NCBI GenBank assembly: GCA_022495995.1 | Contig: JAFEMH010002346.1 | Location: 227,001-291,000 of the forward strand | DNA: 64,000 bases | Source: Adenophora triphylla var. japonica | Lineage: Eukaryota; Streptophyta; Magnoliopsida; Asterales; Campanulaceae | Reading direction: 5' to 3' | In this document: one piece after another, positions 15,204 through 55,744 of the stretch | Numbering within the stretch: position 1 is the first letter of the stretch | Layout of the letters: each line of letters starts with the position of its first letter | Position numbers and translations under genes: made by a program | Notes under the pieces: generated by a model | The model's input: only the letters and a program-made list of their open reading frames with translations | Told to the model about the DNA's origin: nothing | Databases searched by the model: none

Positions 15204-18200
15204 TCAAACCCAAGTACAGATAACTCCATTCTTGTCGGCCGTAGCCAGAGGTTTTCCAAGCCCACTCCAAGAACAGCATAAAACAGAACCCGAATGTTCC
15301 TTCAAAGTACTAACAATACTCGCCTTAGAAATAGACCAAACATGAACCGAACCATCAGCAGATCCAGCAGCAACATAATTATCATCCGCACTTATACAAG
15401 ACCGACTCCAATTAGACGCAACTCTATTTCCACTCGCCCTTAATGTCCCACAAACTTCCAGCGTCCGAATATCAAATAAATTATGCAAATTATCTCTCCC
15501 ACTAGTCAAAATCGTATTCCCATTTCTCGATAAAGAAATTGACGTAACAGCAGATGAATGTGCAGCAACTTCGCTTAAAAGTTTACCTGTTTGAATATCC
15601 CATAATCTTAGATTCCCGTCTACATGACCTGAACAAATGGTCTGACCATCTACACTGAATGAAAGGGCATTGCAGTTACTGGGGAAGATAATTGTGTTAT
15701 TGCAGTAGCCTTTGTTCAGGTCCCACACTTTGATCGTACGGTCGTAAGCTGCACTGATGACATAACGGCTAGAAAATCTGCTCACGTCAACTGCACATAC
15801 TTTATCTATGTGACCTGTTAGTGTGTGGCGGACCCTACCTGAACTTGTGTCCCAAACGTACAAGTTATTTGAGCTACTTGCTGCTATGATGCATTTGTTG
15901 TCATTTGTAATGGCGAGATCAAGGACAGAGCCTAAACAACCGTAGAAAGTTCGGGTCGGTGTCCCTGTATTTGTGTCCCACATTTTTACGGTCTGATCAT
16001 GGCCCCCGCTAATCAATTTGCTGGAAGTGTTCTCAAAAACTATGGAAGCACAGCCACCATCGTGGGCAGAGAATTTATGTTTATACGCAGTGGGGATGGT
16101 TGACTCCACATAGTACTCGGCACCTTTTTCACTTTGACGGATTATACCATCTACTTGCTGACGGGCAAGTTGATTTATGCCGCTTGCCTTGATTTGATCA
16201 AGCATATCTTCGTACAATGCATTAGCCTGAAGAAAAGAGCAAGGTTTTAATATTATAAACATACAACTGCAGCTAAAAGGGTGAAGATGGAATATCTCAA
16301 CCTCAAATGTTCATCTTTATATGAATCAGTAAAAGGATACTCCTTTACAGTTGAGTTTATCCAAGAATCAGTAGAAGTATATCCTCCTTCAAGTGCAACT
16401 TTTGGAAGCACGGACTTTTCAAGAGTCCTATCTATTTCACAGCATTCCACATAGACCCTTATTTCAAAATTTAAGCTTTTAAATTGTTTGAGTTCCAATG
16501 TGTCGTTAATTAAAATATATTGAGGTAGAATTCACGTTTATTACCAAATCTCTCACACGAATGAAAATAAATTCCAGATACAAGTCTCAAGGAAGTAATC
16601 AGATTCAACAAAATGATGGCCTGTAGGCTCTAGGTGACCAAGTTAATTAAATGGCGGAAATAGGGATGGCAGGGAATCGGGTTCTCTCTATGGCGGACCC
16701 GACCCGCACTAGGAAATGAGCATCCCGAACCCGCCCCGACCAGAAAGTCAAGAAACCCGAGTCCGCCCTGACCCGCCCCGAGACACACAAAACCCTTTTT
16801 TTTAGTCAGCTCAACCTTTGCCAAAATCAGTGACTGAAATTCAAATTGATACCATTTAACATGATTAAATCCAAATTTTCAGACACTTGTTCACGAAATC
16901 AAAATTAGGCGTTTAGAAGCCATTTTGGTTTAATTCATTCAAAGATTCCACATGTACAAAACCCTAATTGCTGGAAAATGTCAAAACCATAATCATTTAA
17001 AAAATCCTTCATCCTACCATTGTTATTTAATCTGCAGTTCTAAACAATTGATTTGGAAATCCAACTATAATCAACATTTGAACACGAATAATCGAGAATT
17101 GACACGAGAAAGACTAAGAAGAGGTCTCCTCAGTACCAAACCGTAACTGTTTACTGAAGGGAGAGTCATCGGAGGCTCGGGGTGCTTCCTCGGGATGCAG
17201 AAGCACCAGAACAATGAAGGAAGAAGGCGGAGAAACTCCAGCGTTGGCGTGGCAGAGAAGCGGTGGATGAAGAAATCTGGTGGGGTGCGACACCGCGAGA
17301 GAGTGGCGGAGTGAGGGAGCACTGGTAGAAGACAGACGGAGGTAGGGAGAAAGCCAGAGGGAGCAACTGAGGAAGGTCGGAGAGGAGTGAAAAGACAGGG
17401 AGCAACTGAGGAAGGTCAAAGAGGAGTGAAAAGAGAGAGATAAAGTAAACGGCGCGGAGGGGAAAATGGGAAATGAAACCCTAGTTTATACGTTATATAG
17501 TTAAGTGTCATTGTCTAAATAAAAGATACTTGTGGGGGTGAAAAGAAAGACAAGTATTCACTGGGTTTTAAACATACATATTCATTCATACGGGGCAGGG
17601 CGGGGCGGGTCACAAATGTATGAACCCGAACTTGAACCCGAACCCGACCCGAAAAATGCTTACCAAACCCCAAAAAAATCAGGGCATATCATCTCGGGTT
17701 CAAACTAATTGCCATCCCTAGGTGGAAGGTTAGGGATTTGGGGGGTCTCACACCTGCCTAGCCCATACTAGCAGTCACAATTTCATGTAGAATCAATCAA
17801 ACACACAGATAATAAGATGAAAGAAGTAACACACAGATTTTGTTACCCAGTTCGTTACACATGATTACATCTGGGGGCGTTTTCAAGCCAGAATATTCAC
17901 TATGATCAATATGGGATGGTGTTCACAATTTGCACATGCAATCACTAAGATCTAAACACGGTCACTCTCTATATAAACTACTCTTCTCTAGAAGAACTTA
18001 CACAACTCGGCGATAGCTAGTGTTGTAAGATTTCCCCCATAGCTATCCAAGGCCCCTTAGCCTCTTTGGCTCTCTTGTGATTCTCCCTTGTGTATCCTAG
18101 CTTTTCCCTCGAGCACACATAAAAATATGGTTATCACTATGTTTATATAGGTTTACAAAAAAGAGCCCTAATCCTATTCTAGGTCGAAATTCTACTTAAA

Positions 18201-21200
18201 ATAGGAAACAAGATTTGTCTTGTTCTGCACGACCACACACTGCCACGCACGACCGTGCGTCTATTTTTGCACGATCGTGCAAGTAGTGAAGAACTTTCTG
18301 CTCTCTGACCCTTGCATCCGCACGACCGTGCTCACAAAGATGCACGCCCGTGTCAAACCACTTTGGCCGGTTTGACTCCTTTTCCTCCCTCTTGAACATT
18401 TTGATCTCGTCCCAAACTCCTCCGTGTTTTAGACTCCTTTTACACCATCGTTCTCATGTTGGTTTAGACTCCATAATCCAACAGAGAGAAGAGAAATGCT
18501 GTGAAGTATGCTACCAGCAATCATTCTAATCCATCACTTCAACAAAATGGTCCAAAGAAGCCTCAAATCCTTTGCAGAAGGGGTAGCACATGATGGGTCA
18601 AATCATAGTGAAGAAGCATCCATAAGTCTAGGCTTCATTCATGAATCCTCTAAATATCCTACTTAAAGTCCAGTAAAATGCTCTATTCAGATGTCAGAAG
18701 TTGTAATGGTTAAAAAAACAACAGAAGCCTTTTAAGAGATCTAAGGACCAGAACTTGTAACTCGATGCAATTTTATTTTAATATCAAGCCTCAAGTACAG
18801 TTGCCAAAGCTTTACTTACAATAACAAAAGGATCATTTTCTTTAGAATTGAATCCCCATGCACATTCCGGGTGAAAAGAGACTGTATAAACTCTTAGCAG
18901 CACAAGACTCATAAAAGCATTAAGATGTACAGTGAAATAAGACTTTCAGTGTTAGAACAACAAAAGTATAACAGAAGAAAGGCTATGCGAATACAAAAGG
19001 TAGATTGTAGGGGGGATTCAGAAATCCCCTTTGCTTCTATTTTTTTTTAAATGGGTTTTTTATTAATGAATGACTTAATCTATTACAAGAGTGGCACTTG
19101 GAAGTGCTAGAGGTTGCATTTGGTGGGGTTTGAACCCCTGATCTCTCGTACGGAAATGGATATCGGATGCCGCTTGAGCCAGAGCTCTTTGGCATCCCCT
19201 TTGCTTCTCATGCATCATATTATACCATACAATGTTTGCAAGGAATTATGAGCAACACTAAGAATATAGCTTCAATCAACTAAAAAGTTAAAAACACAAA
19301 AGAAAATGAAAAGGGCAAAGAGACAGGAGAAACCATAACTGCTCCATAGCAAAGGCTAACATATCAACAACTTCTAAGGAACACATCCTAATTGCATAAG
19401 AGAAGTTGACATAATCAAAAAAAGTATCCGTATGGGTTTTGCACAATACCAATCCAAGGACACCCCTCAGGAAGATAAATGAACTCAATAACGATGGGGG
19501 AATTGGTGATTGATGGCAATGATGATAATTAATGCATATGTATGTGTGTGCATTTGTCTACCAGTGAATGTTTCTATATAAAAAATAAATGTTTCTATTA
19601 AAGGAGTTTTTCCAATATAATTGCAAACTAAATATACCTTTAATGTATTCCCCAAATTGAAAAAGAAAAATACGATTCGAAAGAATAAGTAACACACAAT
19701 TGTCAGCTTCATCAATTCAGGTATTACCGCATACCGTCACCCCCCCCCACACACACACTAAAGTTCAAGCAATTTCAGAAATGAAAAAAACAATAACAAT
19801 AATTAACATAAATCAATACCTCATTAAGCCGTTCAGCATCTTGCATTTTCTGCAACATCCAGCGATCAACTAACATCTTGTTTTCAGCCTCAGCATTGTT
19901 AGCCCTTACTTTCATCTCCTCGAACTGTGCTCTGAGTTCTTGGTTCTCACCTATAATCAATTCTATTTCTTTTGTCTTCTCTTCTAGAAGGGCTGTCAAA
20001 CGAGAACATTCTTCTCTGCAGTAAAAGATTAAATCCAGTCAATCAGGTAATACCTCAAATTTCCCAATGATAGTTCCCACAACAGCTAAATTAGATAGAA
20101 GTAGGCATTAAGTGAAGAACCTTGCTTGGGTAAGCACATTTTGCAGATCAGGGATCAAGGCCTCTTTCTCTTGAACTAAAGCTTTTGAAGCTCTGGATTC
20201 AGCAACTTCCACCACAAGCTGCTCAGACAATCGAGATTGAGCTTTATAACATTGCTGAAGTTCCAGTTCAAGATTTTCTGCTTTCTCCTTCCATTCTGAA
20301 CCCTTGAGTTAATACAAACAATCCATATCAATAAGGTAAGAATGAAATCTGAGAAGTGAGAAACCGCTCCATGCAAAAAACTGAAAAATATTAATTATGA
20401 TGATGATAAGAGGCAAAATAGCTGATAAGTGAAATCAGCACAGTAGCTCTTTGGTGCCAATGGGCTTCTTATTAAGTCTCTAGCCAGAATTTTCACAGTT
20501 TGTGCTGATATGGATGCTTAAGCTTCAAAAATTTTACATAGAGAGAGCAGGTTTTAGACTTTGAGACTCCACGACTGATTCTAGTAATGTCACAAAGATG
20601 TCAAATATTAGGGTATACGATTCCCATTCAGTGTTGCTCATTATGTCTTCGGCATCTGTTATTTTCATTTTTTAACAAATCTAAGATTATGAATATTTAA
20701 TTACTATCGTATGCATTTTCTGGGTTAGAGAAATCCACTTTAAGAATAGGTTTTCAAGCTTCAACATGGAACCAAGCAGCCTTCTTTTCATTGAGATCAC
20801 TACTGCTTAATTTGATCATGAAATTTGGCAAGAGACTAAAGTAGTCGACAATTGAGGCATAGAAGGATAGGCTAATATAGCAAAGGTTGAGGGCCTGCAG
20901 GCTAGATAAGACATCAAAAAAGGTTAAACACATTAAGACATCTCCTAAAAACCTGTGAATGAGTAGACGCTTCCAGGAATACAAGACACAATAAGGACAT
21001 CCACTAATGAATGTAAAACACTTGAAAGTTGTTAAGATTGGAGGAATCAAAAATCAGAATTACAAAAGATTAGAATAGCACTAGCTGATTTCAAAAAATT
21101 AAGAGTTCATTGCTTTCATAAAAAAAGAAGATAATAGAAGAATGTAATTAACCAAATGTATTTTTAAAAGATTATCCCAAGTTTATGTTTAAAAAAAGTT

Positions 21201-22569: not shown

Positions 22570-22807
22570 TACTTTTTTTCGTCTCAAAACAAATAATAAT
22601 TTTTTAGAATATTATTGCTTTTACATAAATAAATTTTTAAATAAAAATCAAACATTTATTTTGAGAGTAAGCGAGAGTACACTTTACCTCTAAAATTTAC
22701 TCAATTTTTAATTGATTCTTCTTATTTTTAATTAAGTGAAACGAACTTCAAAAAAAGATAAAAAAGATTGATATTTGAAACATGAAGAATGAAATAGATG
22801 TTTTATA

Positions 22808-23340: not shown

Positions 23341-24176
<836 letters not shown>

Positions 24177-25092
24177 GAATGAACGCCCTCCGAAAATCAA
24201 AACAACTTTTTTTTTATTTTAAAAACACAACTTATTTTTATTTTTAATTTTGGGAGTCGTCACGCCGTTTTTAAAGGAAAACATTGAAAATCCTTCGAAA
24301 ATGAGAAAATGGGTCCAGGAGTCAAGTTACGATGTGGGAAGAGAATATGGAGCTCACCCACATCGCCTCTTTCGAGACTTTCAATCAAACAATGGACAAT
24401 TATAATCATTCTAAGTGTGTGCAATTTGTGTCAACAAACGAGACATGCAAATTTGGATTTCATTGATGGTATTGAAACTAGATACAACTTGTGAACCATG
24501 AAAGGGGGCCACACCCTTACAAACAATGACTTGCATTACAAGGCAGGAGCTGAGACAGTCTGTCCAGGAATCTCGAATGTCGTCCGACACAGGACTTCCT
24601 CAGAGGAGGGATGTCGGACGACATAAGGCCTCCTGATCAGATTGCCTCTTACAAAGGGGGTGGTTAGGCCACCAAAACTAATCTAGATACACTATTTAGG
24701 GTCTGGAACCAACTTGGGGTTGATTGGAGTTAGCAAAGTCAAATTTGACCTTTTGTGATACGGATGTCGTATGACACAGGACACATGATGTTGTCCTGTG
24801 TCGGACGACATAACCGCCTCCATCATCAGGTTTCACCCAAATGGATCTCAGACTTCCCAAACAGTGGTAAATGGACTAAAACTACTTAAACACAACTTTA
24901 AATCACAAAGGGGATCAATCTGGGTAGATCTGAAGTCACTGAAAGCCAAATAGCTTTCTGGGAGCTCTATGTCGTATGACACAGGACTCCTTTAGGAGTC
25001 CCATGTCGTCCGACATAGGTGTCCTATTTCAGTGTTCTTTAGCAGACTGATCCCACCTTGCTCAAAACACAAATCTAAGCTATAATACCAAC
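24177..25092 (-). mobile_element. Non-coding internal part of an LTR element
   Basis: This follows the LTR at 25093-25888 on the minus strand and starts with TTGGTATTATAGC, a primer-binding site close to the initiator-Met type. No gag or pol can be read, so it may be a LARD-like non-autonomous element or a decayed copy. It holds six copies of a TGTCGNNYGACA palindrome (24578, 24612, 24765, 24799, 24970, 25004). Confidence 0.55.
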
Positions 25093-25888
25093 TGGAAACA
25101 ATATAATAACAATACTACGTGAGTATTATGGGAGGATCACATGGCTTTAATGGCCAAATGTGGATAATCACATGTTTTTGGCCATTATCATGTAGCCATC
25201 ACCTCCTAACTCAAACAAAATCAACCAAGATGCAAACTTTAATGCAACTAAGGCTATCAAATGTCCAGATCTGAGGTGAGGAGATGTGAATATGGAAGAT
25301 TCACATCTCCACCACCTTTGTCATGCAAAATCCCAAATATTCACATAATGTTAAACAATATAAGCATGCAATGTAAAACAAATGAGTATGCAAGATGTAA
25401 TCAGAGAGCGAGAGAGTTTAGGGACTACCTATTGTAGTCCACAAGGTAGAAGCACCAATAGTATGGTGTTCACCCCTTCAAAACACCAACAAAGGAGATC
25501 CTTCTTTGGATCTTGGCTTGAATGTGTGTATGTATGAGGAGGGAGGTGAGTGTGTGTGAGAGAGAGAGTGAGTCTCTATTTTAGCAGAGTGACCTTACTT
25601 GCCAAAGTCCCCCTAAAATGATCAGCCAAGCCCTTTATTTATAGGCATGCTGATGGGAGCTCTTATGTCGTACGACATAGGGCGTTAACCGCCTTTGGGT
25701 CGCCCTATGTCGGACGACACCTGTCAACTTTATGACAAGCTGGGCCGCAGGAAGGCAGGCCCAATGGATCAAGCAAATGAATTGATAATTTAGGCTCAAA
25801 ATGCACTTTAGCAAATAAATGAGCCCAAAATTAATGCCAACCATGGAAAGCGGACCAAAAACACGAGTTCGGGTCGGGGTACTCATAG
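25093..25888 (-). repeat. LTR of a non-autonomous LTR element
   Basis: On the minus strand it begins TGAGTACCCC and ends TTTCCA. A TATA box, CCTATAAATAAAGG, lies near 25636-25650. Two further palindromes, TGTCGTACGACA (25666-25677) and TGTCGGACGACA (25708-25719), lie close to the TATA box. The primer-binding site adjoins its end. Confidence 0.6.
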
Positions 25889-26035: not shown

Positions 26036-26800
26036 GATATATGATTGGCCCATTTCCTCTAGGGCCCCTTGGGCGAGATTTAAACCCATTCTAAGAAACA
26101 ACATTTTGTTATTTCCTCAGACACCCCTCCGCCTGCTTGGGCGACCGCCCATCCACATAGGGCGATCGCCCAAGCTCAATTTTTTTTTTTTTTTTTCAAG
26201 CTCAAAACTCGAAAATTATTATTAAGTCTTATATGAGACTTATTAAAAAGTCTTATAAGAAACGTATAAGACTTTAAAAAATTCTTATAAGTTAAAAAGA
26301 GTCTTTTTATAAGACTTTTTGTATAAGTCTTTTAAAAAAGTCTTATAAGTTACTTATAAGACTTCTTAAAAAAGTCTTATAAGTAACTTATAAGACTTTT
26401 TGTATAAGATTTTTAAAAAAGTCTTATAAGTTACTCTTATATTTAATAAGTCTTATATAAAACTTTTTAAAAAGTCTTATAAGTTACTTATAAGACTTTT
26501 TTAAGAAGTCTTATAAGTAACTTATAAGACTTTTTTAAGTCTTATATATGTTATAAGACTTATTAAATATAAGACTTTTTAAAAAGTCTTATAAATTACT
26601 AGGCGAGTTTTATAAGACTTTTTGTACAAGTCTTTTAAAAAAGTCTTATTTAAGTTATAAATAAGTCTTATATGTTACATATAAGACTTTTTTAAAAAGT
26701 CTTATACGTTTCTTATAAGACTTTTTAATAAGTCTCATATAAGACTTAATAATAATTTTCAGTTTTTGAGCTTGGGAAAAAAAAAAAAAATTTGAGCTTG

Positions 26801-38563: not shown

Positions 38564-38564
38564 G

Positions 38565-38582
38565 TGGCGACTCCGCTGGGGA
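38565..38582 (+). other. Primer-binding site of element B
   Basis: TGGCGACTCCGCTGGGGA starts one base after the LTR. This form is usual in Tat/Ogre elements. Confidence 0.8.
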
Positions 38583-39884
38583 CACACTTTTGAAAACCTG
38601 TTTTTCAAAGTTAAGAGGGTCAAGCTTTCATTCGATTAAACATCCAACATATCCATCCTTGTGTGCGTCCTTGATGATCTTTTGTGGTACATGCATTTTA
38701 TTGATTATGAGACTTATGAGCCTTTGGTGTCTTCTGTGGCCATTTTTGTTGTGCTATGTTATTGTGCTTTGTCCCTTGCCATGGAGAGGCAGGGGCTGAT
38801 TTAATTTTGCAGGGTTCTGGTTCAACGACCACTCTAGTCGTGCAACATCTCTGTCGGCTGTCCTGTGTCACGCGACAGGAATGGTCACTGAACATGTCTT
38901 CAGAAGCTGGTTTGAGGGCAGTCCCTTGAATAAAAAATTGGCTCAGTTGATTGTTGTTCTCTTTGTTCCCTGTGAGAGTGTGTGTGTTTTCTCTTTTTCT
39001 TTTCAAAAGTAAATAAAATAAAGTAATAAAATTTTGTTTTCGTAAATAAAAGAACATAGTCATCCACACACTAGACCACATAGATTTAGAACCCTTGGGT
39101 GCGATTGACGGCATCGCGGACGGCCACGAAATTCGCCTACGCTTGAGCGCCTGAAGTCAAACCTATCCCCCTAGCGCGTTATAGGTGGCGCCACACTTAA
39201 ACCTTACCCGCGGTTAGTTTTTGATACAACATTTTTAATCACACCAAAATGAATTGTTTTTGAATCTTACAATAGGTCCTTATACCTTCCCCAAAACCTC
39301 GCATCTTGTGGGCATGTTGCCATTGCAACATGGTTTCACGTAGGGACATGTCACTCTCGTGGCGTGTTCTAACGAGAGATCATGCCGCATTGTCAATGTG
39401 CACCGACGAGAGGTCATGCCGTATTTTTCTTTGAAATTCTTCAAGAATACCCGTTATGCTGCCCAAATTTCCCCAGAAATTTGGACAACCTCTCCGTTCC
39501 ATACGGTGTTAGGTTTTGGTTAGGTATCATTACCCATTATAGATTTCAATGCAAAGCATTTAGTGTGATTTGAATATTGCGTCCCTAGGTTTCCCCAAGG
39601 TGTAGTTTGCGTAAATAAAGGCTTCTCCTTTCCCAACCGTATTTAGGATTTAAGACACTGATTTGTACTTGAAGATAAATAAATTGTTTGTGCGAGTCTA
39701 TCCCTCGTTTCCTCTTCCCTCTCCCGTATTTCCTCAAAGTCTCCCTTCACTACCTTATAAACCCGTATCTACCCCTGCAGCTACGGCGAGTTGGACCGGC
39801 TCATCTGTTCCAGGAGCTCGTTTGGTTCGTGTTGTTGAAGAAGTTCAAGCAGTTTCGGGAGTTTCAGTCAGTTCAGAATCAGAT
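38583..39884 (+). other. Leader of element B before gag
   Basis: About 1.3 kb without a convincing ORF. It has a TGTCACGCGACA palindrome at 38866-38877 and a segment, GTGGCGCCACACTTAAACC, near 39185. Short ORFs on both strands (38494-38799, 39114-38698) show no domain. Confidence 0.55.
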
Positions 39885-42405: not shown

Positions 42406-43503
42406 GAGGTTAATTTGTTGACACGGTCGGGAAGAATGTTGGGAATGGATAGTGCTGATCCATCCAGGAAAGGCAAAGGAGTTGCGGTTTTGAACCCCCA
42501 GGCCTCTCGAGACCCCTACAGATCAGCAGGAAATGAAGAAGTCCAAGAGGATCTGATTTTGACGCAGTTAAAAAGAACCCAGGCTGATATCTCTTTGTGG
42601 TCCCTGCTCACATCCTCCTACCCCCACAAGCTAAAATTAGAAGAGGCTCTGTCCAAAACCAAGGTGTCTGTCAACGCCACTCCAGACGAGGCCTGTCAGC
42701 TGATCGGAACAGCACAGTATGGGAACATCATCACTTTTACAGACCTGGATTTGCCTGCTTACGGTTCAAAGCATAATGAATCTTTGCACATTACTGTACC
42801 CTTGGAAGGGCGCCGAATTCCTCATGTGTTGGTGGACAATGGGTCGGCCATGAACGTGCTTCCTGCCAAGATGATGATTATGCTAGACATTGACGCGCAG
42901 AGCCTTAAGACGTCCAACCAGACTATAAAAGCCTACGATTCGACATCCAGAGCAGTGTTGGGGATAGTCTCTTTGAATCTGTTATTTGGGAGTAAGGAGA
43001 TGGTAGTAGAATTCCAAGTCATTGACATTCCAGTCACATTCTCGGCGTTATTGGGCAGGCCATGGATACATGAAATCATAGTTGTAGCCTCCACCCTCCA
43101 CCAGTGTTTGAAGTTTGTGCAAGATGGGGTTATGACAACCATTTACGGGGATAGTGTCACTATTGGGGAGACCAGCACCAATACCATGCCAGTGATGGAA
43201 ATCAAGCTTGACCAAGAGAGCCTGATGCTCAGTGGTTTCACGATCGAAAAGCCGAAAGGTCATGTCTGCACTATCGATTTAACAACTTTCTCAGACAAAA
43301 TTCCCCCGATATTGAAAATGATGAGAGGCATGAGCTACATCCCTGGCCTGGGACTAGGGAAGCATCAACAGAGACCATGTAAGCTTGTGATGCCGGAACC
43401 CAAGAGAAACAGGCGAGGCCTGGGATATGTCATGACTGGAGAGGACAAATCGTACGATAAAGCTGAAGCGCTCAAAAAAAAGGATGACCTTAGCTGCCGG
43501 TAA
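42406..43503 (+). pseudogene. Protease region of element B
   Basis: Aspartic protease with the active-site segment VLVDNGSAMNVLP (Asp near 42835) and the flap-side FSALLGRPWIH, as in Tat elements. A G-patch-like segment, GMSYIPGLGLGKHQQ, follows near 43330-43375. The frame ends at TAA 43503 because an A-run (CAAAAAAAAGG near 43475) has one base too many; the next frame continues the polyprotein from 43484. Confidence 0.88.
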
Positions 43504-45391
43504 GAGATACAAAAGACCTGACATGCGCCCTTATAGCTGGTCTCTAAATAGGCACTTCGTTAAGGAGGATGGGGAAATGTTCGTTTGCCCGGAACTGAAG
43601 CTGAGTCAAGCAGAAGAGAGGATGAGAACAATTCGAAGGTTTGCCAGTACTCAGAACCCAGTGAAGGAAATGCTCGTCAGCATGCCCAGAAGGCCAGGCG
43701 TCACTGCTACATATGAGAACAGCTACCATTTTTGGGGGCCCGATTATGTCAACCAGTTTGAGAAGCTTGCTCTGGATGAGCCTGTGATACACAAGATCCG
43801 TGGTGCAGATCCTGTAGACATGGACGGTGATTTGGCAAATCTGTTCGAAGATCAGGGGCTGTCAGAGCCTGAGAATGGTATGTTTACAGAGGAGATACCG
43901 GCAGAAAGGGTTGTTACAAAAGATCCCCGAGACTTGATTGATTTTTCTTCAGATGATGAGGTGGTGGCTATGTTGGAATTTGGGAAGGGGCCGGCTGTAA
44001 ATCCGAGCATTCTAGAGACAGTTGCAGAGAGGCCGTTGCAGAATTGGACTTCATTTCAAGGACCGGTCGCTGACAGGGAGACTATGATCAAAAAGCTTGG
44101 GCTTAAGCCTCGTCCCAGTCCCTCTACGTCTAAATTTTTCCCCCGTGTCTTGAGTCCTTCCCCTGAATCCCTTGTAATTGAGTTCGAGTCCTCTAATCGG
44201 TCTGACGTCCTCACGATGGAAGACCGTCGTCGTGTTGTAGACACTATTTTCCCTTTCGCTCTGAATAAAATGGTCGATCTTTCTGAGTATCCCGTGATTG
44301 CAAATCTAACAATTGAACGCTTAACAAAAAATGATCATCAAGATTTAAAAATAATTAAGCCAGATTCAATTGAAGATAATGCAGACTTAATAGATGAACA
44401 AATTATAGAAAATAATTCAAAGCAGGTTTGCGAGCAAAAGGAAAGCCGGGCCCAAGCTGCCGATGAGGTATTGACAACGGTGAACCTGGGAACAACTGAA
44501 GAACCCAAAGAAACGCAAATCGGTATCTTCTTCTCCGGAGTTGAACGGGATACCCTGATCGAGCTACTCAAAGAGTTTGTAGACGTCTTTGCCTGGTCCT
44601 ACAAAGACATGTCTGGGTTGGATACATCTACCGTAGAGCACCGGATACCCCTAGATACAGAGATCAAGCCGATCAAGCAGAAACTGAGGCGGATCAAGCC
44701 CGAGTGGTCCCTACAGGTCAAGAAAGAAATTGAGAAACTCCTACGGGTGGGCTTTATCAAGGTGATCGAATATCCGATTTGGCTGGCAAACATTGTAACG
44801 GCCACAAAGGCGAATGGAAAAGTACGAGTCTGTGTAGATTTTCGAGACCTCAACAAGGCTAGTCCCAAAGATGACTTCCCCCTGCTGAACATTGACATGC
44901 TTATGGATACAACAGCAAACTATGAAGTCAAATCCTTCATCGATGGCTTTGCGGGTTATAATCAGATTAAAATGGCCGAGGAAGATCATGACAAGACATC
45001 ATTTACCACTCCTTGGGGCACCTATTGCTACACAGTGATGCCATTTGGACTGAAGAATGTCGGGGCTACTTACCAGAGGTCCGTCACTACCTTGTTCCAC
45101 GACATGATCCACAAGGAGATTGAAGTGTATGTGGATGATATGATTATTCACTCGAAAGGGTCAGATGGACAGCATTTCACTGATTTAAGGAAGTTCTTCA
45201 ACAGACTTCGGGAACACTCTATGAGATTAAATCCAACCAAGTGCACTTTCAGGGTTATCCGTGGTAAGGTCTTGGGATATATGGTCACAGAACGCGGCAT
45301 TGAGGTAGATCCCAGAAAGGTCAAGGCAATTGTTGAGATGAAGCCGCCCAGGACTGTCTCCGAGGTAAAGGGTTTCATGGGCCGTCTATAG
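43484..45391 (+). pseudogene. Reverse transcriptase of element B
   Basis: After a long linker, the RT core begins near 44700 with VKKEIEKLLRVGFIKVIEYP and shows VCVDFRDLNKASPKDDFPL, VMPFGLKNVGATYQR and the catalytic YVDD (45128-45139). One domain position reads FIDGFAGYNQI where FMDGFSGYNQI is usual. It ends at TAG (45389-45391) in GRL-stop-YISRF, where the family has Gln. Confidence 0.93.
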
Positions 45392-46400
45392 TACATCAGC
45401 CGATTTGTCAACCAGCTGACTTCCATGTGTGAACCAATATTCAAGCTGCTAAAGAAGAATTAGGAGGTGATTTGGAACGAAGAATGCCAACTAGCTTTCG
45501 AGAGAATCAAAGCTTACCTTGTTAATCCTCCCATTCTTTGCCCACCTCATGGGAGCAAACCTCTACTTCTTTACTTGACGGTCACAGATACGGTCATCGG
45601 GGCCATGCTGGCGCAAGAGAAGAAGGACTCCAAGGTTGAGAATGCCATCTATTTTGTCAGCCACAAATTCCAAGGTAGCGAGTTGAATTACTCTGCCCTA
45701 GAGAAAACATGTGCTGCTCTGGTTTGGGTGGTCGGAAAGCTAAAGCACTACATGTTATCCCACACAGTACATCTGGTTTCCGAAATGGACCCAATTAAGT
45801 ACCCGTTTCAGGGTGATAGAGGCAACATTTCCACCAGACTGGCACAATGGACCTTCTTCCTAGCTGAGTTTGATATTAAATATGTGATCCGGAAAGCAAT
45901 CAAAGGACAGGCTCTGGCAGATCAGCTGGCTGACTTCCCCATCACAGAAGCCCGAGGACCAGATCTCCAGTTTCCAGATGAGGGGATTTTTGTCGTAGAA
46001 AATGGCAACCGGTGGCAATTATTCTTTGACGGTGCGGCGAACAAAAGAGGTAACGGCATCGGGATGGTACTAGTAGACCCGAATGACATGAATACCCCCA
46101 TAGCTATCAAGCTAAACTTCTCGGTTACCAACAACGCAGCTGAATATGAAGCTTGCATAGCCGATCTCGAAGTTGCTCTTGAACGGAATGTGGATGAATT
46201 GGAATTGTTCGGGGACTCCCAACTGATAATTAATCAAGCCGCCGACAGATGGAAAACTACAAACCCATGTCTCCAGAGGTATCATGCTTATATTGCAGAG
46301 CTCGTCGGCCAGTTTAAGGAAGTGTCATTCCAGTTCCTACCACGGGAAAAGAACAGATTCACCGACGCACTAGCTACTCTGGCCTCCTTGGTGGAAATAC
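45392..46400 (+). pseudogene. Tandem RNase H domains of element B
   Basis: The first (gypsy) RNase H is represented by GAMLAQEKKD and NYSALEKTCAALVW. A second, archaeal-type RNase H follows with WQLFFDGAANKRGNGIGMVL, NNAAEYEACIADLEVAL, LELFGDSQLIINQ and FTDALATLASL, keeping the D-E-D-D residues. Two RNase H copies in a row are typical of the Tat lineage. A TAG at 45462 follows KKN where NQ is expected. The frame is otherwise open to 47257. Confidence 0.9.
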
Positions 46401-46609
46401 CAGAGGGAAAGTCAATCAAGCCGTTCAGGGTCGGAAGGCGAGAAAATCCTGCATATTGTTGTGAAATAGAGATCGAAACCGTCGATGAGCCGTGGTACAA
46501 CCAGATCTTCCAGTATCTTAAGCATGGTGAAGCATCCTTCCCCGTTGATAAAGAAGAAGACTCAAAAGGCATTCGGGCCAAGAGTTTGCAAGCCCTGAAA
46601 AGGCTATCA

Positions 46610-47727
46610 GCACAGTACGTCATACTTGGCAATGAATTATGGAAGAAAAGGGAAGGTTGCCCTCTCCTGCTCTATATCAGCAAAGAAAAAGCTCAGAGAG
46701 TAATGGAAGATGTTCACAACGGTGCCTACGGACCTCACATGAATGCTCGATCCCTTATGCACAGCATTATCAGACTGGGTTATTTCTGGATCACCATGGA
46801 GACTGATTGTATCCAGTTTGTGCGGACTTGCGATAAGTGCCATCGGTTCTCCAACCTAAACCATATCCCTCCTCATGATCTATATTGTATGACAACTCCT
46901 TGGCCCTTTGCAACATGGGGAATCGATGTCATCAGGAAGATAACTCCATCAAGGAGCAATGGACATTCATTTGTTTTGGTCGCGGTAGATTACTTCATAA
47001 AGTGGGTGGAAGCTGTGTCCTACAAAGTGCTCACAGCCAAGAAGGTTGCTCATTTCATAAAGGAGCAAATCTTCTGCCGCTACGGAGTCCCGAATGTGAT
47101 TATCTCTGACAATGGGTCCCACTTTGAAGGAGAAGCTGATCGGCTGCTCACCGACCCCAGAAGAACGGTGCTGTTGAGGCTGCGAATAAGAACCTGGAGA
47201 GAATCAAAAAGAAGATGGCCGAACGAGGACGGGATTGGCCAGAGAAACTGCATTTAGCATTGTGGGGCTACCGCACTTCAATACGAACTGCTACCGGTGC
47301 AACTCCATATGCCTTGACTTATGGAATGGAGGCTGTCATGCCCATTGAGCTAGAGATTCCATCCCTCAGGGTATTGCTTGAGAATGAAGTAAATGAGATT
47401 GAATGGCTCCAAAGTCGATACAACGAATTGGCACTGTTAGATGAACGCAGATTAAAAGCCATGGAGCACAACAGGGCATATCAGAAGAGAATGGCCCGTG
47501 CCTTCAACAAAAGAGTGAAACCCAGGGATATCAAGGTTGGTGATCTGGTCCTCAAGATGAAGCCCTCGAATCAGAGCAGTGCACTGGGCAAATGGGCACC
47601 TGATTTGGTCGGACCCTTTCTAGTGAAGAAGATATTCTCCGGAGGAGCGATGCAGCTAACAGATTTGGAGGGCAACCAGTTCCTGTACCCCGTCAACGGC
47701 GACAAGTTGCGGCGATATTATGTGTGA
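46610..47727 (+). pseudogene. Integrase of element B
   Basis: HHCC zinc region around RTCDKCHRFSN, then the D-D-E core: WGIDVI (near 46920), ISDNGSHFEGEADRLL (near 47104), and AVEAANKN (near 47175). Between the last two, the family's usual stretch before RPQTNGAVEAANKN is mostly missing, and the frame shifts. The C-terminal part (47215-47727) holds WPEKLHLALWGYRTS, GATPYALTYGMEAVMP and a GDLVLKM...LVGPF chromo-like/GPF region, ending YYV at TGA. Confidence 0.92.
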
Positions 47728-48350
47728 TCGAGTCTTTTTCCCCCTCTGTATAAAAATAATAAAAAAAAGAATAAAAAAATAGAAGAAATGAAAATAAAGG
47801 CGCAATAAAATTGTCCCAGATGAGACTGAAAACCTCTCAAAAGGCAGTCCATGCAAAAATAAGGGACGCGCCCGGTGCTAAAAGAATATACCCAACTAGA
47901 CTGAAAACCCTAAAAATGGGCGGTCTAGGTAAAAACAGGGTTACACCATGTCCCCCTTCTATCTTCCCTTTCTTAAACACGAAAGTTGATTGAGTCGAAC
48001 TACGGAGACCTGAGCCCCTTAGTTCTCTTTGTAAAAGGGGAACGTAGGCAACCACTTGTGGTTCGGTCTAAAATGATGCAAAATCTCAAATCTTGCCAAA
48101 ATGTGTTTTGATTACGGTTCCAAAGCTTTTCAAAGGTTCATTTTAAGTTAATATTCTTTTTGATGAGTTCAAGCACGGCCTGCTTTTGACTCAAATAACT
48201 TGCTACGAATAAAAGGCAATAAATTTTCAAAAAAAATGCTAACATCTATTTTGTCTGCATTAGGTAATCAAGGGGTACTCACGTTCCATACAATAAATCC
48301 CTCCCTCAAGATAAAAACAAAAATAGTCTCTTATCTCTCAGAAAAAGTGT
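47728..48350 (+). other. Post-integrase spacer of element B
   Basis: Contains two imperfect copies of GACTGAAAACC...AAAA...GGCRGTC (about 47823-47850 and 47900-47925) followed by TAGGTAAAAACAGGG. A similar motif is found after pol in other Tat elements, to my knowledge. No gene. Confidence 0.5.
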
Positions 48351-49802
48351 CTAGAAGCTCGTTCCCGCTCCCGAACTCGCTCCTATGTCCTTCCTTTTCC
48401 TCGGTCCCCGGGAAGTCCTCGGCCTAGGAATGTCAAATAAGTCGGTTTGAGCTCGTCCCAGCTCAGGTTTAACGCGTGCCGGTGGCTCGATCAGACCAGT
48501 CTCCCTCAAAGCGGCCATAGCAATCCTCTCTTGTCTCAAGGCCTCTCTGCGAGCTACCACCTCTGGATCATCCCTCAGAGCAGATCTCCGGATCTCATGT
48601 CGCCGATAGTCCTCAGCAATATCGCCGGTAACATTATCTGGGTTCCCCTGGGCCTCTGTATCTCTAAAAGACCGGCTGGTCGAGTAGTTTGCTCCCAAGT
48701 ATTCCCGATGGCGAGCCTCTATTGCCAACTGTACAGGACCCTGTTGCTCCTCATACCAGATCAAATACTCTGTGGTCAAGAATGTAATCCCTCTGGAATG
48801 CCGAAGAAGTGTCCAGGTTGGAAAGAAACCCTCCAGAAAGGATCTGCTGAAAAACTGCATAGTCTGGGGCTCAGCCATGGCCATCGGAACAGCATCAGTC
48901 GTCAGCTTCCCCCTCAAAGCCCGGACAATTTGCTGAGGGTACCCATACTGTCTGCTCACCAGTGATGGGACGCAGAATGAAGATACATGCAAGCCTGGCA
49001 GCCTGACTACCACTGACCCATCCTGAATGTCTCTCGTGGTCCGTAACCTCCACTGAATCCAAAAGCTCGATCGGCAGTCCCGCATGCCGCGTCAATCTCA
49101 TCTCGCGCTACGCCGCCGGCCGCATCCTCGCCACTCGCGTGGCCGGGTCACCCAAGGCATCGCCGTCCGACCCTCTGGTAATGGCCCAATCAAGTGCAAC
49201 CTCTCAGAGAACCACGAGGATAACAAACTGGGGCTGCCTGCGCCCATAAAATCCGACCCTTCTGCTAGCCTATCAATACCATGGTAGGTCTCAGCCAACA
49301 ACAGTGGTACAATGTCCATCTCCCCTTGGCCGAACCGGATTTGACGAAGGTCCACACCCCGGTCACCCCTTAGTTACCTGACAATCTCCAGCAACGCACC
49401 TGGACAGACTCCATTATATCCACAAAAATAGTAAGTCGACAAAGTGAGCAGCATAAACATGTCTAGAGATGTGGAAAGATCGAACAGCTCAGGACTGGAT
49501 AAGCACAACCTAGCCATCCGAGTCAAGTCTATGGACCCATCACCCAGAATCATAGATGGCACCTGATCCGCTGGCAAGCACAGGAAGTCCGATAACTGCT
49601 CCACAACCGACCGTCCATCCCTTGGAAATGCTACATTCGCCGCCTCGCCCAGGCCTGTCAATGCCCTGAAGTCCTCCATGGTTGGTGTCAGATCATTATA
49701 TGACAGAGTAAAGACGTGCCGCTCCGAGTCCCAAAAGCAGGATGCAGCCCGGAGCAAATCCCAGTCGATCCTCCAGTCTTTCAAGGGCAAAATGCATGGC
49801 AT
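48351..49802 (-). pseudogene. Antisense ORF of element B (plant mobile domain)
   Basis: One minus-strand frame, opposite to the element's own genes, runs from at least 49802 to 48351 with three in-frame stops (TAA near 49374, TGA near 49098 and 49092). The N-terminal part has DWDLLRAASCFWDSERHVFT and LSYNDLTPTMEDFRALTGL, the plant mobile domain (PMD/MAIN-like) signature; DLRQIRFGQGEMD and a Tyr/Trp-rich core follow, with an Arg-rich C-terminus. Antisense ORFs between integrase and 3' LTR are established for Tat elements. The two TGAs fit CGA to TGA changes. Function in the element is unknown. Confidence 0.8.
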
Positions 49803-50680
49803 GTTGTACCGCCTGTCAATAACTTGCCTGTGATGCTTTTGATGAAATTGCCAAATTTCAACAAAGTCCTAATGGAATTGATGCCCCTGAGAAGATACTC
49901 CTCCACTATAAGGCTCCATTGCAGTTGAAAGTATCAGTCTTTGCCAAAGATATCGCTTGTCTGTCAAGCTGGGGCTGCTAATTTCCTTCCACTGAAAGAG
50001 CAGTGTTTGCAAATGAACCCTGAACTGATTTTAAAAAGGGACCTGTTACGAGCTGATTCCAGTCGTGCGACATAACTTGTCCAGCAGACATGTCATGTCG
50101 GGCGACACATCTGGTCAACATCAGACAACATCGAAGTACTTGCAATGTCTACCCCCTAAGGCACTTTCTGACTCGTCGCCGCTATAATACACCTCCCATC
50201 CTCACATACATTCCCATGTAAATGCACGGGAGTGGGCCCCCTACCATATGTATCACCATACACACTCACCCGATACAGTCCCACCATCTCATGTACAAAC
50301 CCGGCAAAGCCGACCTTTCAATACAATAACCACATTTCCTTCACCTCGTTCCCAGAGTGGACAGATTCGCGTAAACAAGCTAACATAGTTTAATCTTTGC
50401 TAATGGAATAGAATAGTTGGATATAGTGCTTGGAGTGTTGTTTCCCCCGCAGGTACAATGATCAACTGAGCACCGTCAAAGGACTTCCCCTCGAAGAAAA
50501 AGCCGAGACAAAGATTCCACATCTGTCAGTCTCCCCAAGCAACGCTCATCAGTATCATCGACCCCGCCGCCAAAGCATCAGCAAAAATCCGCTCCCTAGC
50601 AAGCAAAACTCCCATCCTACCAGGCGAAGTCCCTGACCCCAAAGCCAACCGTCAACAGAGGCCGTCCCGCACTTGGCAGA
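49803..50680 (+). other. 3' UTR of element B before the minisatellite
   Basis: No gene. Contains GTCGTGCGACATAA near 50073 and TCATGTCGGGCGACACAT near 50094, further members of the palindrome family of the LTRs. Confidence 0.5.
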
Positions 50681-50689
50681 ACCAGTAAG

Positions 50690-51180
50690 CCACCAACACA
50701 GTAGTAGCATGAGACCCTCCGGCAGCTACAACTATCCCCAGCAGAATCAATAGTAGCGTGAGTCCCTTGGCAGCTACCCTTCACCAACACCCAGTGGTAT
50801 GAGTCCCTCCGGCGTCCACGACCGCCATCAACAGTAGCGTGAGTCCCCTGGCAGATACCCTTCACCAACACCAAGTGGTATGAGTCCCTCCGGCATCCAT
50901 GACCACCATCGACAGCGGTAGCGTGAGACCCTCCGGCAGCTACTCGCCACTACCAGTTGCAGCATGAGTCCCTCCGACAGCTACATCCTTTCATCGACAG
51001 CGGTAGCATGAGACCCTCCGGCAGCTACTCGCCACTACCAGTTGCAGCATGAGTCCCTCCGGCAGCTACAACCAAACATCGACAGCGGTAGCATGAGACC
51101 CTCCGGCAGCTACTCGCCACCACCAGTTGCAGCATGAGTCCCTCCGGCAGCTACAACCTTCCACCATCCGCAGTAACACC
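50690..51180 (+). repeat. Minisatellite in the 3' UTR of element B
   Basis: Units built on AGCATGAGACCCTCCGGCAG and TTGCAGCATGAGTCCCTCCG repeat about ten times. A higher-order unit of about 100 bp (CGACAGCGGTAGCATGAG ... CTCGCCACTACCAG) repeats with high similarity at 50921, 50996 and 51078. Confidence 0.9.
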
Positions 51181-51450
51181 AGTCCTTTCGACAGCTACAG
51201 GTAAGCACAGCAAAGGTATGAAATCACATCTCTACCCTTTCTTGCTTCTTGTCCATTTTTGTTTCCGAACTACGATTTGGCTTGATTCCTTCCTAGGGAT
51301 ACGTAGGAATCCTTTCTCCAAAGGTCTAGCCATCCGATCTCTCCAGATCACTGTCCAGCCCTCCGCCTTATCCCTTGACCGCTCATTGGGATTAGGTCTT
51401 ATTTTATCGACAACCTCACTTCTTCCATAAGTGACGTTGCCGAGGGGCTC
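51181..51450 (+). other. Polypurine-tract region before the 3' LTR of B
   Basis: Ends GCCGAGGGGCTC directly before the LTR TG at 51451; CGAGGGG is the best candidate polypurine tract. Confidence 0.55.
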
Positions 51451-52865
51451 TGTAAGTACGCCAATCCAATTCTCTCCCTTTTGGTGCATTTTAATGCGAT
51501 AAAATTGCATTAAGGGGCATTTTGGTAAATTTCCGGCCTATCTCGAGACTTTCGGAAATATTTCATAAGTTTCTCGCGAAGGAAGTACCTTTTGGTACTT
51601 TGCTCATGCTAAAGGACCTGCCGGAATAAACCTTTTTGGACCTTTTGGGTATTTATACCTGAATATTCCAGAAACTGGTTTTGACGCCAAAAGCAGTTAG
51701 TGACACCTTGTCTCACGCGACAAGTCGAGACTTGGAAAATGGTCACAGAAGGTCGTGCGACACACTGTGACCATCAACTGCAGCCTATAAATAATACCCT
51801 ACCCCTCTTAGAAATGGATCCCAACTTCACACACTGTTACTCTGCCAAAATTGTAACGTAACACACACACTAAACACACACCCCTCTCTCTCTCTCTCAT
51901 CCCAATTTACCTCTAATTCCATCCAATTCAACCCACTTCGTCCATTACCTCTTAGATCCACCATCAACCAATCCTCTCAAGCTCACCAAGACCAGAAGCT
52001 GTTGTAGAAGGGTTCTGTACCTAACTTGGTACAGAATTCGTGGAATCAACAAGGGTAACATCCTCAATTCCTTTCTCTCTCTCTCTTCTACCTTGCTACT
52101 TTGATAATTCTATTATTCTACCTTCCTTGGATTCAGTAATCAGACTCCATCCGTCTTGATTACTGAATCCCAATCGCAATCTCTCTGTTTAACATAGTTG
52201 TTTTGTATAATTGGTTGTTCATTGCTTGATTATTGTGGAAATTGGTGTTTAGACCCCAAGGGGGTGTGGATCTATCCATATCCACACTCCCTGGGTTGAA
52301 TTGTTGTTAATTCGTTCATTCCGAAGTTAATCTGGATGTGTAATTAGATCTATGTTGGTTGTTTGTTCTTCTGTGTTCAAGCTGTGAGGTATCTGCATAC
52401 GGACGTCCTGTGTCACGCGACACATCGTGTTTGGTTGATCCTGTGTCACGCGACACATTCAGCCATGCATGTCATGTGTCACGCGACACTCTATGTCCAT
52501 TTGCAGAAACCATTTTCCCTTGTAATCTGTATTGATCTGTTGTATATGGGATGTGGCCTCCCTGAATAAATGGTTCATAAGTTGTAAGTTTCCAAGTTCA
52601 TATCAATAAAATTCATGTTTACTACATTTTTTTATTATCAATGCTTGCACACATTTATGGATTACTTGGATGTTTAATTAGAAAGACTCGTCTACGGACG
52701 AGGCGTGTTGGGTGAACTCTCGGTTCTTCCCAACACGTAACCTGACCCCCAGACCCATTTTCTCTCAAAGGTTTTTCAAAGTGTACCTCTAAAATATGGC
52801 GTGGCGACTCCTTTTTCTTTTTTCATCATTGAAAAAACAAAATTTTGCGGGCGAGAGCACATTCA
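51451..52865 (+). repeat. 3' LTR of element B
   Basis: 1,415 bp, TGTAAGTACG...GCACATTCA, near-identical to 37148-38563. Carries the same TGTCACGCGACA palindromes; the one that is TGTCACGTGACA in the 5' LTR reads TGTCACGCGACA here. Confidence 0.93.
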
Positions 52866-52866
52866 G

Positions 52867-53908: not shown

Positions 53909-55744
53909 TGTAAGTACCCAAATCCGGATCGTCAAAATCCGCTAAAAGTTAACCGGAATCCGTTAACTGGCCCGCTCCAGGTTAACCGGAACCCGTTAAG
54001 CTCCCCGTTCTCAAGCCAACGAGACGTCTCGGGACTGCCCCGTGCATCCCAATGTCGAAGCGTAGTCAACACACATCGTCGCACGTAAAAGTACAGCTTC
54101 TCCTGAAAAACACACTTTTCGGCACTTTTCGGGGGCATTTCGGACATTTTCCGGACAGTTATTTAAAAAACGGACAAAACCGGGGATAATGGCACGAAAT
54201 CCCATAAACCTGGTGAGTCACAGGACACGTGGCACGCATGCCACAGCTCCCTTGTCAACCTCAAATAGATTTCAGTGTGAAAAGACTAAAATACCCCTGG
54301 TATACAGTCCAAGTCCGGCCGGACTCTTTTACAAATAACCAGAATTGCCAGCAAGTCCCTCCAGTTTTCAAAGTTTCACAAAACCCCTGGAATTCAGCCT
54401 AAGTTCGTCAGAACTCTTTTGCAAAATTCACCTATAAATACAGAGGTCAGTTAACAGCAACAAAAAAAAGAAAAAACTTACTCTCTTCTCTCCACAGCCA
54501 CGACCCAAACCCCTTCAACCCCTTTCGAGCCCCGTTTTGCCTCGATTTGCATGAAAACTCCGCGTTTCAACCAAACAAGAACCAAAACGCCTCGAAACAC
54601 CATTCCAAACACTAAATCGTATCCCGTATATGCCTCCCGAGTCAAAAGAGTCAACCCCTAGCCATAGGTAACACTCTCACTCCCTAAACTCTTGTTCCGT
54701 CTCGGTTTACATGTCAGTCGCTACTACCGTTTTGGACGACGTTGTTGAAATGTAGACGTCACCGTCTAACGGGGTCCGATATATTTTAGTCCTTGATCCT
54801 CTTCTCTTCCCGTAAGAGAAGTAATCTCGGGTTAAAACGGTGTTTCGGCCCCGTTCCGTTACTTTTCATGTCATTTACAAATTTCGGATCGTTTGATCTG
54901 TCGATAGTCATTTACTTTTATGTCATTTACAAATTCCGGATCGTTTGATCCGTTGATCGTCATTTACTTTTACGCAACTTTACAATTCCGAGCCGTTTGG
55001 TTCGTTGAACATACTTTACAATTCCGGGTCGTTTGATTCCGTCGATACCGCACTTTAAATACTGTCATTTACAAGTCCGAGCCGTTTGGATCGTGATAGT
55101 ATTTACTTATCAAAAGTCCGAGTCGCAAAAACGATTCGTTGATCGCATGTCATTTAATGCTTTTTTCCCGTAAAATTGCTAACAATGAAATGCCCGGTTA
55201 AAAACCGGAGTTCGACATTCGGACTCTCTTTCAAAAACGCGCGAAATGACGTTTGGCATCCAAACGATCATCTTCAAACCCAAAAAATCCGACGTTTGAC
55301 ATTCAAACGCTCTTTTCTTAAAAGTCAACATTTGACAATTAAGTTAAAAGATCAAAATCAGCATTCGTGTCACTTTTCCTAAAGAACTTCAAAAACGACG
55401 TTTGTCATTCAAACGCTCGCCTTTTCAAACAGAAACACAATAATCAACGTTTGACATTCAAACCAAGATTAAGTTTGTCATTTAAGCCCCCATTTTCAAA
55501 ATGCAACCCCACACACCCACACACACACACATTTTCGAGAAAGGTAGAAAGACCTGTCATACGAGGCGTTTCGAGTGATCTCAAAATACTCTTCCCGAAA
55601 CGTAACGTGACCTCCGAACCTAACAATCTCTGGTACTCAAAAAATCTTTTTTCTCGTTTTTGCTATCAATAAAAATGACACCCCCTTTCAAAGCTTTTTC
55701 CTAAGTGTTTTGGTAGAAAAAACAATAGAGTAGAATCTTAACTT
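53909..55744 (+). repeat. LTR D, a large Tat-type LTR
   Basis: Begins TGTAAGTACCC, like the LTR of B, inside the gag of A. A TATA box, CCTATAAATACAG, is near 54431. At about 54890-55110 diverged units with TTTACAAWTCCGGRTCGTTTG repeat. At 55250-55464 four copies of the imperfect palindrome CGTTTGACATTCAAACG occur. The far end is not found because LTR C interrupts at 55745; whether this is a solo LTR or a full element is open. Confidence 0.65.

What the first reader, a model, noticed from the sequence alone, without database searches (positions are those of the whole stretch)
17757..55464. Unrelated elements each carry their own repeated short palindromes
Four 12-mer families and one 17-mer recur: GCACGAYCGTGC in the intronic LTR (18247, 18269, 18320), with half-forms in the LTRs at 803, 932 and 2165; TGTCGNNYGACA in the element at 24578-25719 (eight copies, two beside its TATA box); GGGCGAYCGCCC in the hairpin arms (26139, 26160, 26837, 26858); TGTCACGCGACA in element B LTRs and leader (37410, 38108, 38141, 38174, 38866); CGTTTGACATTCAAACG in LTR D (55250-55464). 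The motifs differ between elements but share length, self-complementarity and CG steps. They may be protein-binding sites or RNA stem-loops kept by selection; that is inference. I know of no description of this pattern.
Basis: partly seen in the sequence, partly recalled or inferred. Interest (0 to 1): 0.78.

Follow-up and report, generated by a model that had tools for sequence, protein, structure and literature searches.

The report
Promoter palindromes of plant retrotransposons
Many mobile elements in this plant genome carry their own repeated 12-letter mirror-image DNA words, and in one group of retrotransposons such a word sits at a nearly fixed distance in front of the start-of-transcription signal, which suggests a docking site for a paired DNA-binding protein that has not been identified.

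Summary
The quoted words are present, one with a letter changed. Locally repeated, otherwise isolated 12-mers are palindromic far beyond an internal control, in the window and in 200 kb of other loci. The genome is 2.48 Gb; TGTCACGCGACA occurs 55,421 times against 4 for the reversed word. 'Unrelated elements' is wrong for three: B, the 24.5-kb element and LTR D share a U5 tail, and B is Tat/Ogre-like Ty3. In LTRs found by this tail, not by the palindrome, a near-palindrome starts 29-36 bp upstream of TATA in 16 of 19, while 22 other 8-bp bands hold 0-5. Most read N3-CG-NN-CG-N3; the arms change on both sides together (TGT/ACA, GTC/GAC, GGC/GCC, ATC/GAT). Best reading: a site for a dimeric DNA-binding protein that drives LTR transcription; arrays further downstream may be RNA hairpins. 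Repeated LTR palindromes are not undescribed: Sirevirus 'RM' boxes (PMC2829016). New, as far as eight paper searches show, are the Tat lineage, the TATA spacing and the shared core.

The parts
37148..52865 (+). Element B: Tat/Ogre-like Ty3 retrotransposon, LTRs 37148-38563 and 51451-52865 (ends read from the sequence, no clean target-site duplication seen)
37450..37461 (+). Promoter palindrome GGTCGTGCGACA, starts 35 bp before TATAAATA (37485)
   Evidence: 4 of 6 pairs
37410..37421 (+). Second U3 palindrome TGTCACGCGACA, 40 bp further upstream
38108..38185 (+). Array of three TGTCACGYGACA, 33 bp apart, between TATA and poly(A) signals (R region, inferred)
38866..38877 (+). TGTCACGCGACA in B's leader
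51751..51762 (+). Promoter palindrome GGTCGTGCGACA of B's 3' LTR
52411..52488 (+).
24253..25719 (-). Element C: LTR related to B (U5 homology 24253-24378), outer ends not delimited
25666..25719 (-). Pair TGTCGTACGACA / TGTCGTCCGACA 42 bp apart; the inner one starts 34 bp before TATAAATA (25643, minus strand)
   Evidence: nested hairpin z -7.3
24970..25015 (-). Palindrome pair 34 bp apart with self-complementary middle
   Evidence: z -9.3
24765..24810 (-). Palindrome pair 34 bp apart with self-complementary middle
   Evidence: z -5.3
24578..24623 (-). Palindrome pair 34 bp apart with self-complementary middle
   Evidence: z -4.9
54403..54414 (+). LTR D promoter palindrome GTTCGTCAGAAC, starts 30 bp before TATAAATA (54433); L034, 92% alike in U5, reads GTCCGTTCGGAC
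   Evidence: 4 of 6 pairs
54312..54325 (+). Second D U3 palindrome AGTCCGGCCGGACT (perfect 14-mer)
   Evidence: read
55250..55464 (+). D array CGTTTGNCATYCAAAC (4 copies), with CAT centre on the sense strand
18227..18353 (-). U3-like array GCACGAYCGTGC (three full and two part copies, spaced 20, 22, 51, 22), 78 bp upstream of a TATA-like site on the minus strand
   Evidence: second LTR not looked for
26139..26171 (.). GGGCGAYCGCCC pair 21 bp apart in the left arm of a long inverted repeat; mirrored at 26837-26869
10762..12292 (.). TAGTGTACACTA family (8 copies, some with a mismatch) inside an element with inverted ends (10251-10712 / 12173-12635)
48354..49868 (-). Antisense ORFs (49377-49868 and 48354-49091) between pol and 3' LTR of B; the first weakly matches DUF7745 / plant mobile domain, below the curated cut-offs: candidate DNA-associated protein

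Best explanation
The promoter-proximal palindromes are binding sites for a dimeric, sequence-specific DNA-binding protein that drives transcription from the LTR. The 12-bp site has, in most LTRs, a CG-NN-CG middle and 3-bp outer arms that differ by lineage. In Tat-like LTRs it ends 17-24 bp upstream of the TATA box, where a dimer could reach the core promoter; extra copies act as an enhancer array. Shown: position, core, covarying arms, better conservation than adjacent flanks, genome-wide abundance. Inferred: that a protein binds, that it is a dimer, that it activates, and whether it is a host factor or an element's own product. Downstream (R region) arrays may share this role or act as RNA hairpins.
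For: Position: 12 Tat-like LTRs found by U5 homology alone (8 from random loci, 4 in the window), B's 3' LTR then left out, plus 8 fetched from 100 listed places of a U5 pattern: 16 of 19 have a palindrome of 5 or 6 pairs starting at -36..-29, against 0-5 of 19 in each of 22 other 8-bp bands. Two later LTRs of the L053/L055 family also have it at -34; four others of that fetch held no TATA and say nothing. At 69 TATAAATA sites of the 20 random loci and the window, 15 CG-core palindromes lie between -150 and +100, 8 of them at -35..-29 and none downstream (the 8 are among the 19). Covariation: in 15 distinct 12-mers the three outer pairs are complementary in 12, 15 and 15, with 3, 2 and 2 pair types; 0.25, 0.1 and 0.1% of shuffles do as well. 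Conservation: in ten B-like LTRs 53-81% identical to B the R palindromes are 91-100% identical while adjacent 12-bp flanks are 33-56%. Copy number. Core.
Against: No protein is known; no expression, binding or methylation data were available. The LTRs share descent, so the 19 are not independent, and shuffles ignore relatedness. Pairs 4 and 5 (the CG steps) have one pair type each and say nothing on covariation; the innermost pair is complementary in 8 of 15 (3.6% of shuffles do as well). The ten LTRs were picked because they hold the motif: 31 of 40 sites are exact, 21 of 30 after setting one aside per locus; the aligner may favour motif copies; and other stretches are as well kept (the palindromes rank 1, 39, 47, 67 and 129 of 1386 windows, the U5 tail is among the best). 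Offsets fall in two groups (-33..-36 and -29..-32), so spacing is not rigid. Asymmetric centres are strand-fixed (51:0, 29:0 and 19:0), which a symmetric site does not require, though common descent explains it too. U3 is also in the 3' end of the RNA, so position before TATA does not exclude an RNA role. B, D and L042 reach only 4 of 6 pairs.
Confidence: 0.6

Rival explanations
1. RNA hairpins: palindromes, above all the R-region arrays and nested pairs, act in the genomic RNA (packaging, dimer formation, stability) or feed dicing into small RNAs.
For: The four 46-54 bp units of element C fold with z -4.9 to -9.3, and B's R array with z -4.8. Of 23 other pairings of C's inner arms only 1 matches as well as the true one. 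D-type arrays have stems around a constant CAT centre, some changed with compensation (GTTTGA/TCAAAC, GTTTGG/CCAAAC, AGTTCGA/TCGAACT). Asymmetric centres are always in the sense orientation in the loci that could be oriented (5 of 23 loci could not). Small RNAs gather on Sirevirus palindromes in maize (stated in PMC5311732 and PMC10760457, passages).
Against: The distance to TATA is a DNA-level property. B's U3 pair does not fold better than shuffles (z -1.5). Other D-type copies are not compensated (GTTTGTCATTCAAAC, and GTTTGCCATTCAAAC in all six copies of L042). A 12-bp perfect palindrome makes only a 4-bp stem with a 4-base loop. Orientation can be inherited. No RNA data.
Confidence: 0.25
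2. By-product without function: tandem and inverted duplication during reverse transcription or replication multiplies chance palindromes, and LTR descent keeps them in place.
For: Arrays do grow and shrink (85-bp repeats carrying TGTCGTGCGACA; spacing 23, 33, 34), and GCACGACCGTGT at 803 and 932 is a plain duplication.
Against: Repeated isolated copies with unlike flanks are enriched only for 12-mers with 5-6 pairs, not 0-4. Arms covary and the core is kept at a near-fixed place while flanks differ.
Confidence: 0.1
3. Several different host transcription factors, one per lineage; the likeness of the sites is convergence. (A version of the best explanation, so the odds overlap.)
For: Some palindromes look like known sites from memory: CTGGATATCCAG (L046) fits the PHR1 site GNATATNC, and TTTTGGCGCCAAAA in B's U3 looks like an E2F site. 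Both labels are recalled, not tested.
Against: 10 of 16 repeated families of the random loci share CG at 4-5 and 8-9, some in elements not found by the U5 tail, which argues for one kind of binding domain; several of the 16 are related to each other.
Confidence: 0.2

Closest known systems
Sirevirus repeated motif (RM) boxes (Bousios et al. 2010, PMC2829016; passages, section 9)
   Same: Each element has its own palindrome, many copies per LTR, upstream of TATA, differing between elements, CG-containing.
   Different: Those are Ty1/copia Sireviruses, nearly all with a CGG-CCG signature, called Sirevirus-specific among the copia elements compared. Here Ty3 Tat-like LTRs and other elements, CG-NN-CG at fixed places, near-fixed distance to TATA, and covarying arms.
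Palindrome-rich cis region of maize Sireviruses and small RNAs (Bousios et al. 2016; paper not held; known through PMC5311732 and PMC10760457, passages)
   Same: Palindrome clusters in LTRs; PMC10760457 reports one palindrome as the commonest motif in both copia and Helitron elements.
Retand antisense TRP28 ORF (PMC11963269; passages)
   Same: B also has antisense ORFs between pol and 3' LTR; the author suggests DNA binding for TRP28.
   Different: No TRP28 match in B's antisense ORFs; a weak DUF7745/plant mobile domain match instead.
Tnt1 box I and other repeated LTR activator sites (box I named in PMC2829016; arrays of sometimes palindromic repeats mentioned in PMC10760457; passages only)
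   Same: Symmetric or repeated activator sites in LTRs.
   Different: Not compared by sequence here.

Membership tests
Tat/Ogre-like Ty3 lineage (element B) | Ty3 order RT - RNase H - integrase | tested here: met
   (H2C2 above, rve below its curated cut-off)
Tat/Ogre-like Ty3 lineage (element B) | Second RNase H domain (RVT_3) between RNase H and integrase | tested here: met
Tat/Ogre-like Ty3 lineage (element B) | Placement in a reverse transcriptase tree | not tested
   no tree built
Tat/Ogre-like Ty3 lineage (C and D) | LTR homology to B | tested here: met
   U5 only: C to B E 2e-15; D to B E 8e-8; no coding part of C or D identified
Retand | Antisense TRP28 (PF04195) ORF between pol and 3' LTR | tested here: not met
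   antisense ORFs present but no PF04195 match
Sirevirus RM boxes | Host element is a Ty1/copia Sirevirus | tested here: not met
   B is Ty3; other array-bearing elements not classified
Sirevirus RM boxes | CGG-CCG core | tested here: not met
   Tat-like sites mostly read CG-NN-CG with CCG-NN-CGG or TCG-NN-CGA
Sirevirus RM boxes | Palindromes upstream of TATA in the LTR | tested here: met
Host transcription factor site | Match to a binding profile | not testable with these tools
   no profile library; names are recalled

The most novel reading that the evidence does not exclude
Private promoter keys: each Tat-like lineage encodes its own DNA-binding protein (for instance the antisense ORF with a plant-mobile-domain-like stretch) that recognises the arms of its own palindromes, so arms and protein co-evolve while the CG-NN-CG contact and the distance to TATA stay near constant. 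This would let an element switch on, or un-silence, only its own kind.
Probability: 0.13. Interest if true: 0.85.

Novelty: new variant of a known kind. Interest (0 to 1): 0.6.

Why it matters
Tat/Ogre-like elements are large and abundant in plants (recalled), and what turns their promoters on is not known to me. A near-fixed 12-bp site with a constant middle and lineage-specific, compensated arms gives a concrete bait for finding the factor, and a clean test of whether elements in one genome share one activator or each carry a private one. The same form in other elements suggests a common kind of binding domain.

Tried and rejected
Viral contigs: RT protein, PBS pattern and U5 pattern gave no relatives. 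Prokaryote contigs: the PBS pattern hit four metagenome bins; taken as chance, not read. Fixed helical spacing (about 22, 33/34, 42 bp) was seen but not tested; 33-34 bp is not a whole number of turns. Linking arm type to the antisense ORF: tblastn found diverged relatives in L045 and L052, but in L045 the ORF is on the same strand as the LTR and in L052 its place relative to the LTR is unclear, so nothing is claimed. A protein search with one ORF gave a single hit. Nearest copies of B and C (40 of each listed) could not be fetched. Genome counts for TGTCGNNYGACA, GGGCGAYCGCCC and the 17-mer were planned: GGGCGAYCGCCC was asked and never answered; the other two were not asked. A DNA search with the LTR at 17.8 kb was asked once, unanswered, and not repeated. 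One paper search was rejected for a short term and the 2016 Genome Research paper is not held.
Full report
What was checked. The quoted motifs are in the window, with small corrections given under the observation check. An unbiased scan for locally repeated near-palindromic 12-mers finds 6 families of 3 or more copies, against a mean of 0.025 in 40 dinucleotide shuffles. Because real plant DNA is full of repeats, one search uses the DNA as its own control. Among 12-mers with 0-4 self-complementary pairs about 1% have two or more other isolated copies within 1.3 kb. With 5 pairs it is 5% (30 of 575) and with 6 pairs 15% (12 of 78) in 20 other loci; in the window 11% (18 of 161) and 43% (9 of 21).

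The genome. The window lies in a 2.48-Gb assembly. TGTCACGCGACA occurs 27,744 + 27,677 times against 2 + 2 for the word read backwards. GCACGAYCGTGC has 1,567 forward and 1,622 reverse matches against 12 and 13 (its T form counts on both strands). TAGTGTACACTA has 6,287 sites against 303. In 20 loci of 10 kb, chosen by contig number and not by content, the same scan gives 19 clusters against a shuffle mean of 0.03. One of the 19 is a 50-bp satellite. Others are GTCCGTACGGAC, GCACGGCCGTGC, GCTCGGCCGAGC and AGGCGNGCGCCT; in some arrays copies lie 20-23 bp apart, in others not.

What the elements are. B has a G-patch, RT, RNase H, a second RNase H (RVT_3) and integrase parts in Ty3 order (the integrase core match is below its cut-off), so it is filed as Tat/Ogre-like; no tree was built. 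The 24.5-kb element matches B's U5 (blastn E 2e-15) and so does D more weakly (E 8e-8). The LTR at 17.8-18.5 kb, the hairpin at 26 kb and the LTRs at 0.7-2.5 kb were not classified further.

The central result. Using the U5 tail as the only bait, 12 LTRs were found in the random loci and the window. Their TATA regions show a palindrome at nearly one place. With 8 more LTRs, chosen from 100 listed places of a U5 pattern that has 11,861 + 11,720 copies and none for its reverse, and one of B's two LTRs left out, 16 of 19 have a palindrome of 5-6 pairs starting 29-36 bp before TATA. Each of 22 other 8-bp bands has 0-5 of 19. The three misses (B, D, L042) have 4 of 6 pairs in a register that I picked as the best in -37..-27 with CG counted in its favour, so for these the place is descriptive. 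L059 counts through a register that one can dispute. Of the 16, which were found by pairing alone, 14 have CG at both places (counted from the rows). Two further LTRs of one already sampled family agree; four of that fetch held no TATA. In 15 distinct 12-mers the outer three pairs are complementary in 12, 15 and 15 against shuffle means of 7.0, 7.8 and 9.1; the two CG pairs show one pair type each, and the innermost is complementary in 8 against 4.4. D reads GTT/AAC where L034, 92% alike in U5, reads GTC/GAC, a change on both sides; D has also lost one CG.

The same core elsewhere. Of 77 repeated near-palindromes in the random loci 51 have CG at positions 4-5 and 8-9, against 17 of 576 single ones; by family 10 of 16, several of them related. 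Families without it include CTGGATATCCAG and, in the window, TAGTGTACACTA.

Conservation. Ten B-like LTRs, picked on one contig because they hold the motif, are 53-81% identical to B. Their R palindromes are 91-100% identical, with 12-bp flanks at 33-56%; U3 palindromes 87-89% with flanks 56-67%. Among 1386 windows they rank 1, 39, 47, 67 and 129, so other stretches, the U5 tail above all, are as well kept. Setting aside one motif per locus for the way they were found leaves 21 of 30 exact sites (counted from the rows). B's own 5' and 3' LTRs differ by one letter in each of two of these sites, about the LTR background, as expected after insertion (read).

DNA or RNA. The TATA spacing favours a DNA-level site. 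The R arrays are less clear. C's units fold far better than shuffles, B's R array too, B's U3 pair not. D-type arrays have a constant CAT centre with stems of which some change together and some do not. Asymmetric centres point one way only (51:0, 29:0, 19:0). In that count 5 of 23 loci could not be oriented and were set aside, and one of these, L014, holds a copy with the centre GCAC. The bias fits RNA but also common descent; in C both orientations occur. I therefore commit to a dimeric DNA-binding protein for the promoter site and leave the R arrays open.

Known work. Bousios et al. 2010 (PMC2829016; passages and section 9 read) describe palindromic repeated motifs, one kind per element, in Sirevirus LTRs upstream of TATA, nearly all with a CGG-CCG signature, and call them Sirevirus-specific among copia elements. 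PMC10760457 (passages) restates that small RNAs gather on such palindromes in maize, that one palindrome is commonest in both copia and Helitron elements, and that maize Ty3 elements generally lack an obvious structure peak. Eight paper searches on palindromes, seen as listings, showed no account of the Tat spacing or of the CG-NN-CG core; most subscription papers are not in that library.

A candidate protein. B has antisense ORFs between pol and the 3' LTR. One weakly matches DUF7745 and the plant mobile domain, both below the curated cut-off. Retand elements have antisense TRP28 ORFs thought to bind DNA (PMC11963269, passages), and a share of the genes down-regulated in Arabidopsis plant-mobile-domain mutants have a common promoter motif (PMC7156037, passages). 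This is a lead only.

Noticed in passing
38401-38438, 24329-24367 (-), 55566-55604: U5 of the Tat-like LTRs holds a stem that differs between families but stays largely paired (GTGTTGGG/CCCAACAC, GATGTGGG/CCCACATC, GTTTCG/CGAAAC), beside CGTAACNTGACNYCNGRACC with 23,581 genome matches. Single sequences fold only slightly better than shuffles (z -1.4, -2.2, -0.9), and L034 and L038 are less well paired.
   Followed up: partly
38499-38509 and 38564-38574: B's U5 repeats the letters GTGGCGACTCC that open the presumed primer-binding site; C has GTGACGACTCC at the like place (read).
   Followed up: no
10251-12635: Element with inverted ends (90% over 471 aligned bp) holding the TAGTGTACACTA family; the word is 20-fold over its reversed control in the genome.
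   Followed up: partly
37378-37391: TTTTGGCGCCAAAA, a perfect palindrome in B's U3 107 bp before TATA, like an E2F site (recalled), one base changed in the 3' LTR.
   Followed up: no
50691-51198: Tandem repeats with periods of about 81-85 bp between pol and the 3' LTR of B.
   Followed up: no
L048:40-251 and L048:9648-9837: An array mixing GCTCGGCCGAGC and GCACGGCCGTGT: same core, arms changed largely on both sides within one array, present near both ends of the 10-kb locus.
   Followed up: no
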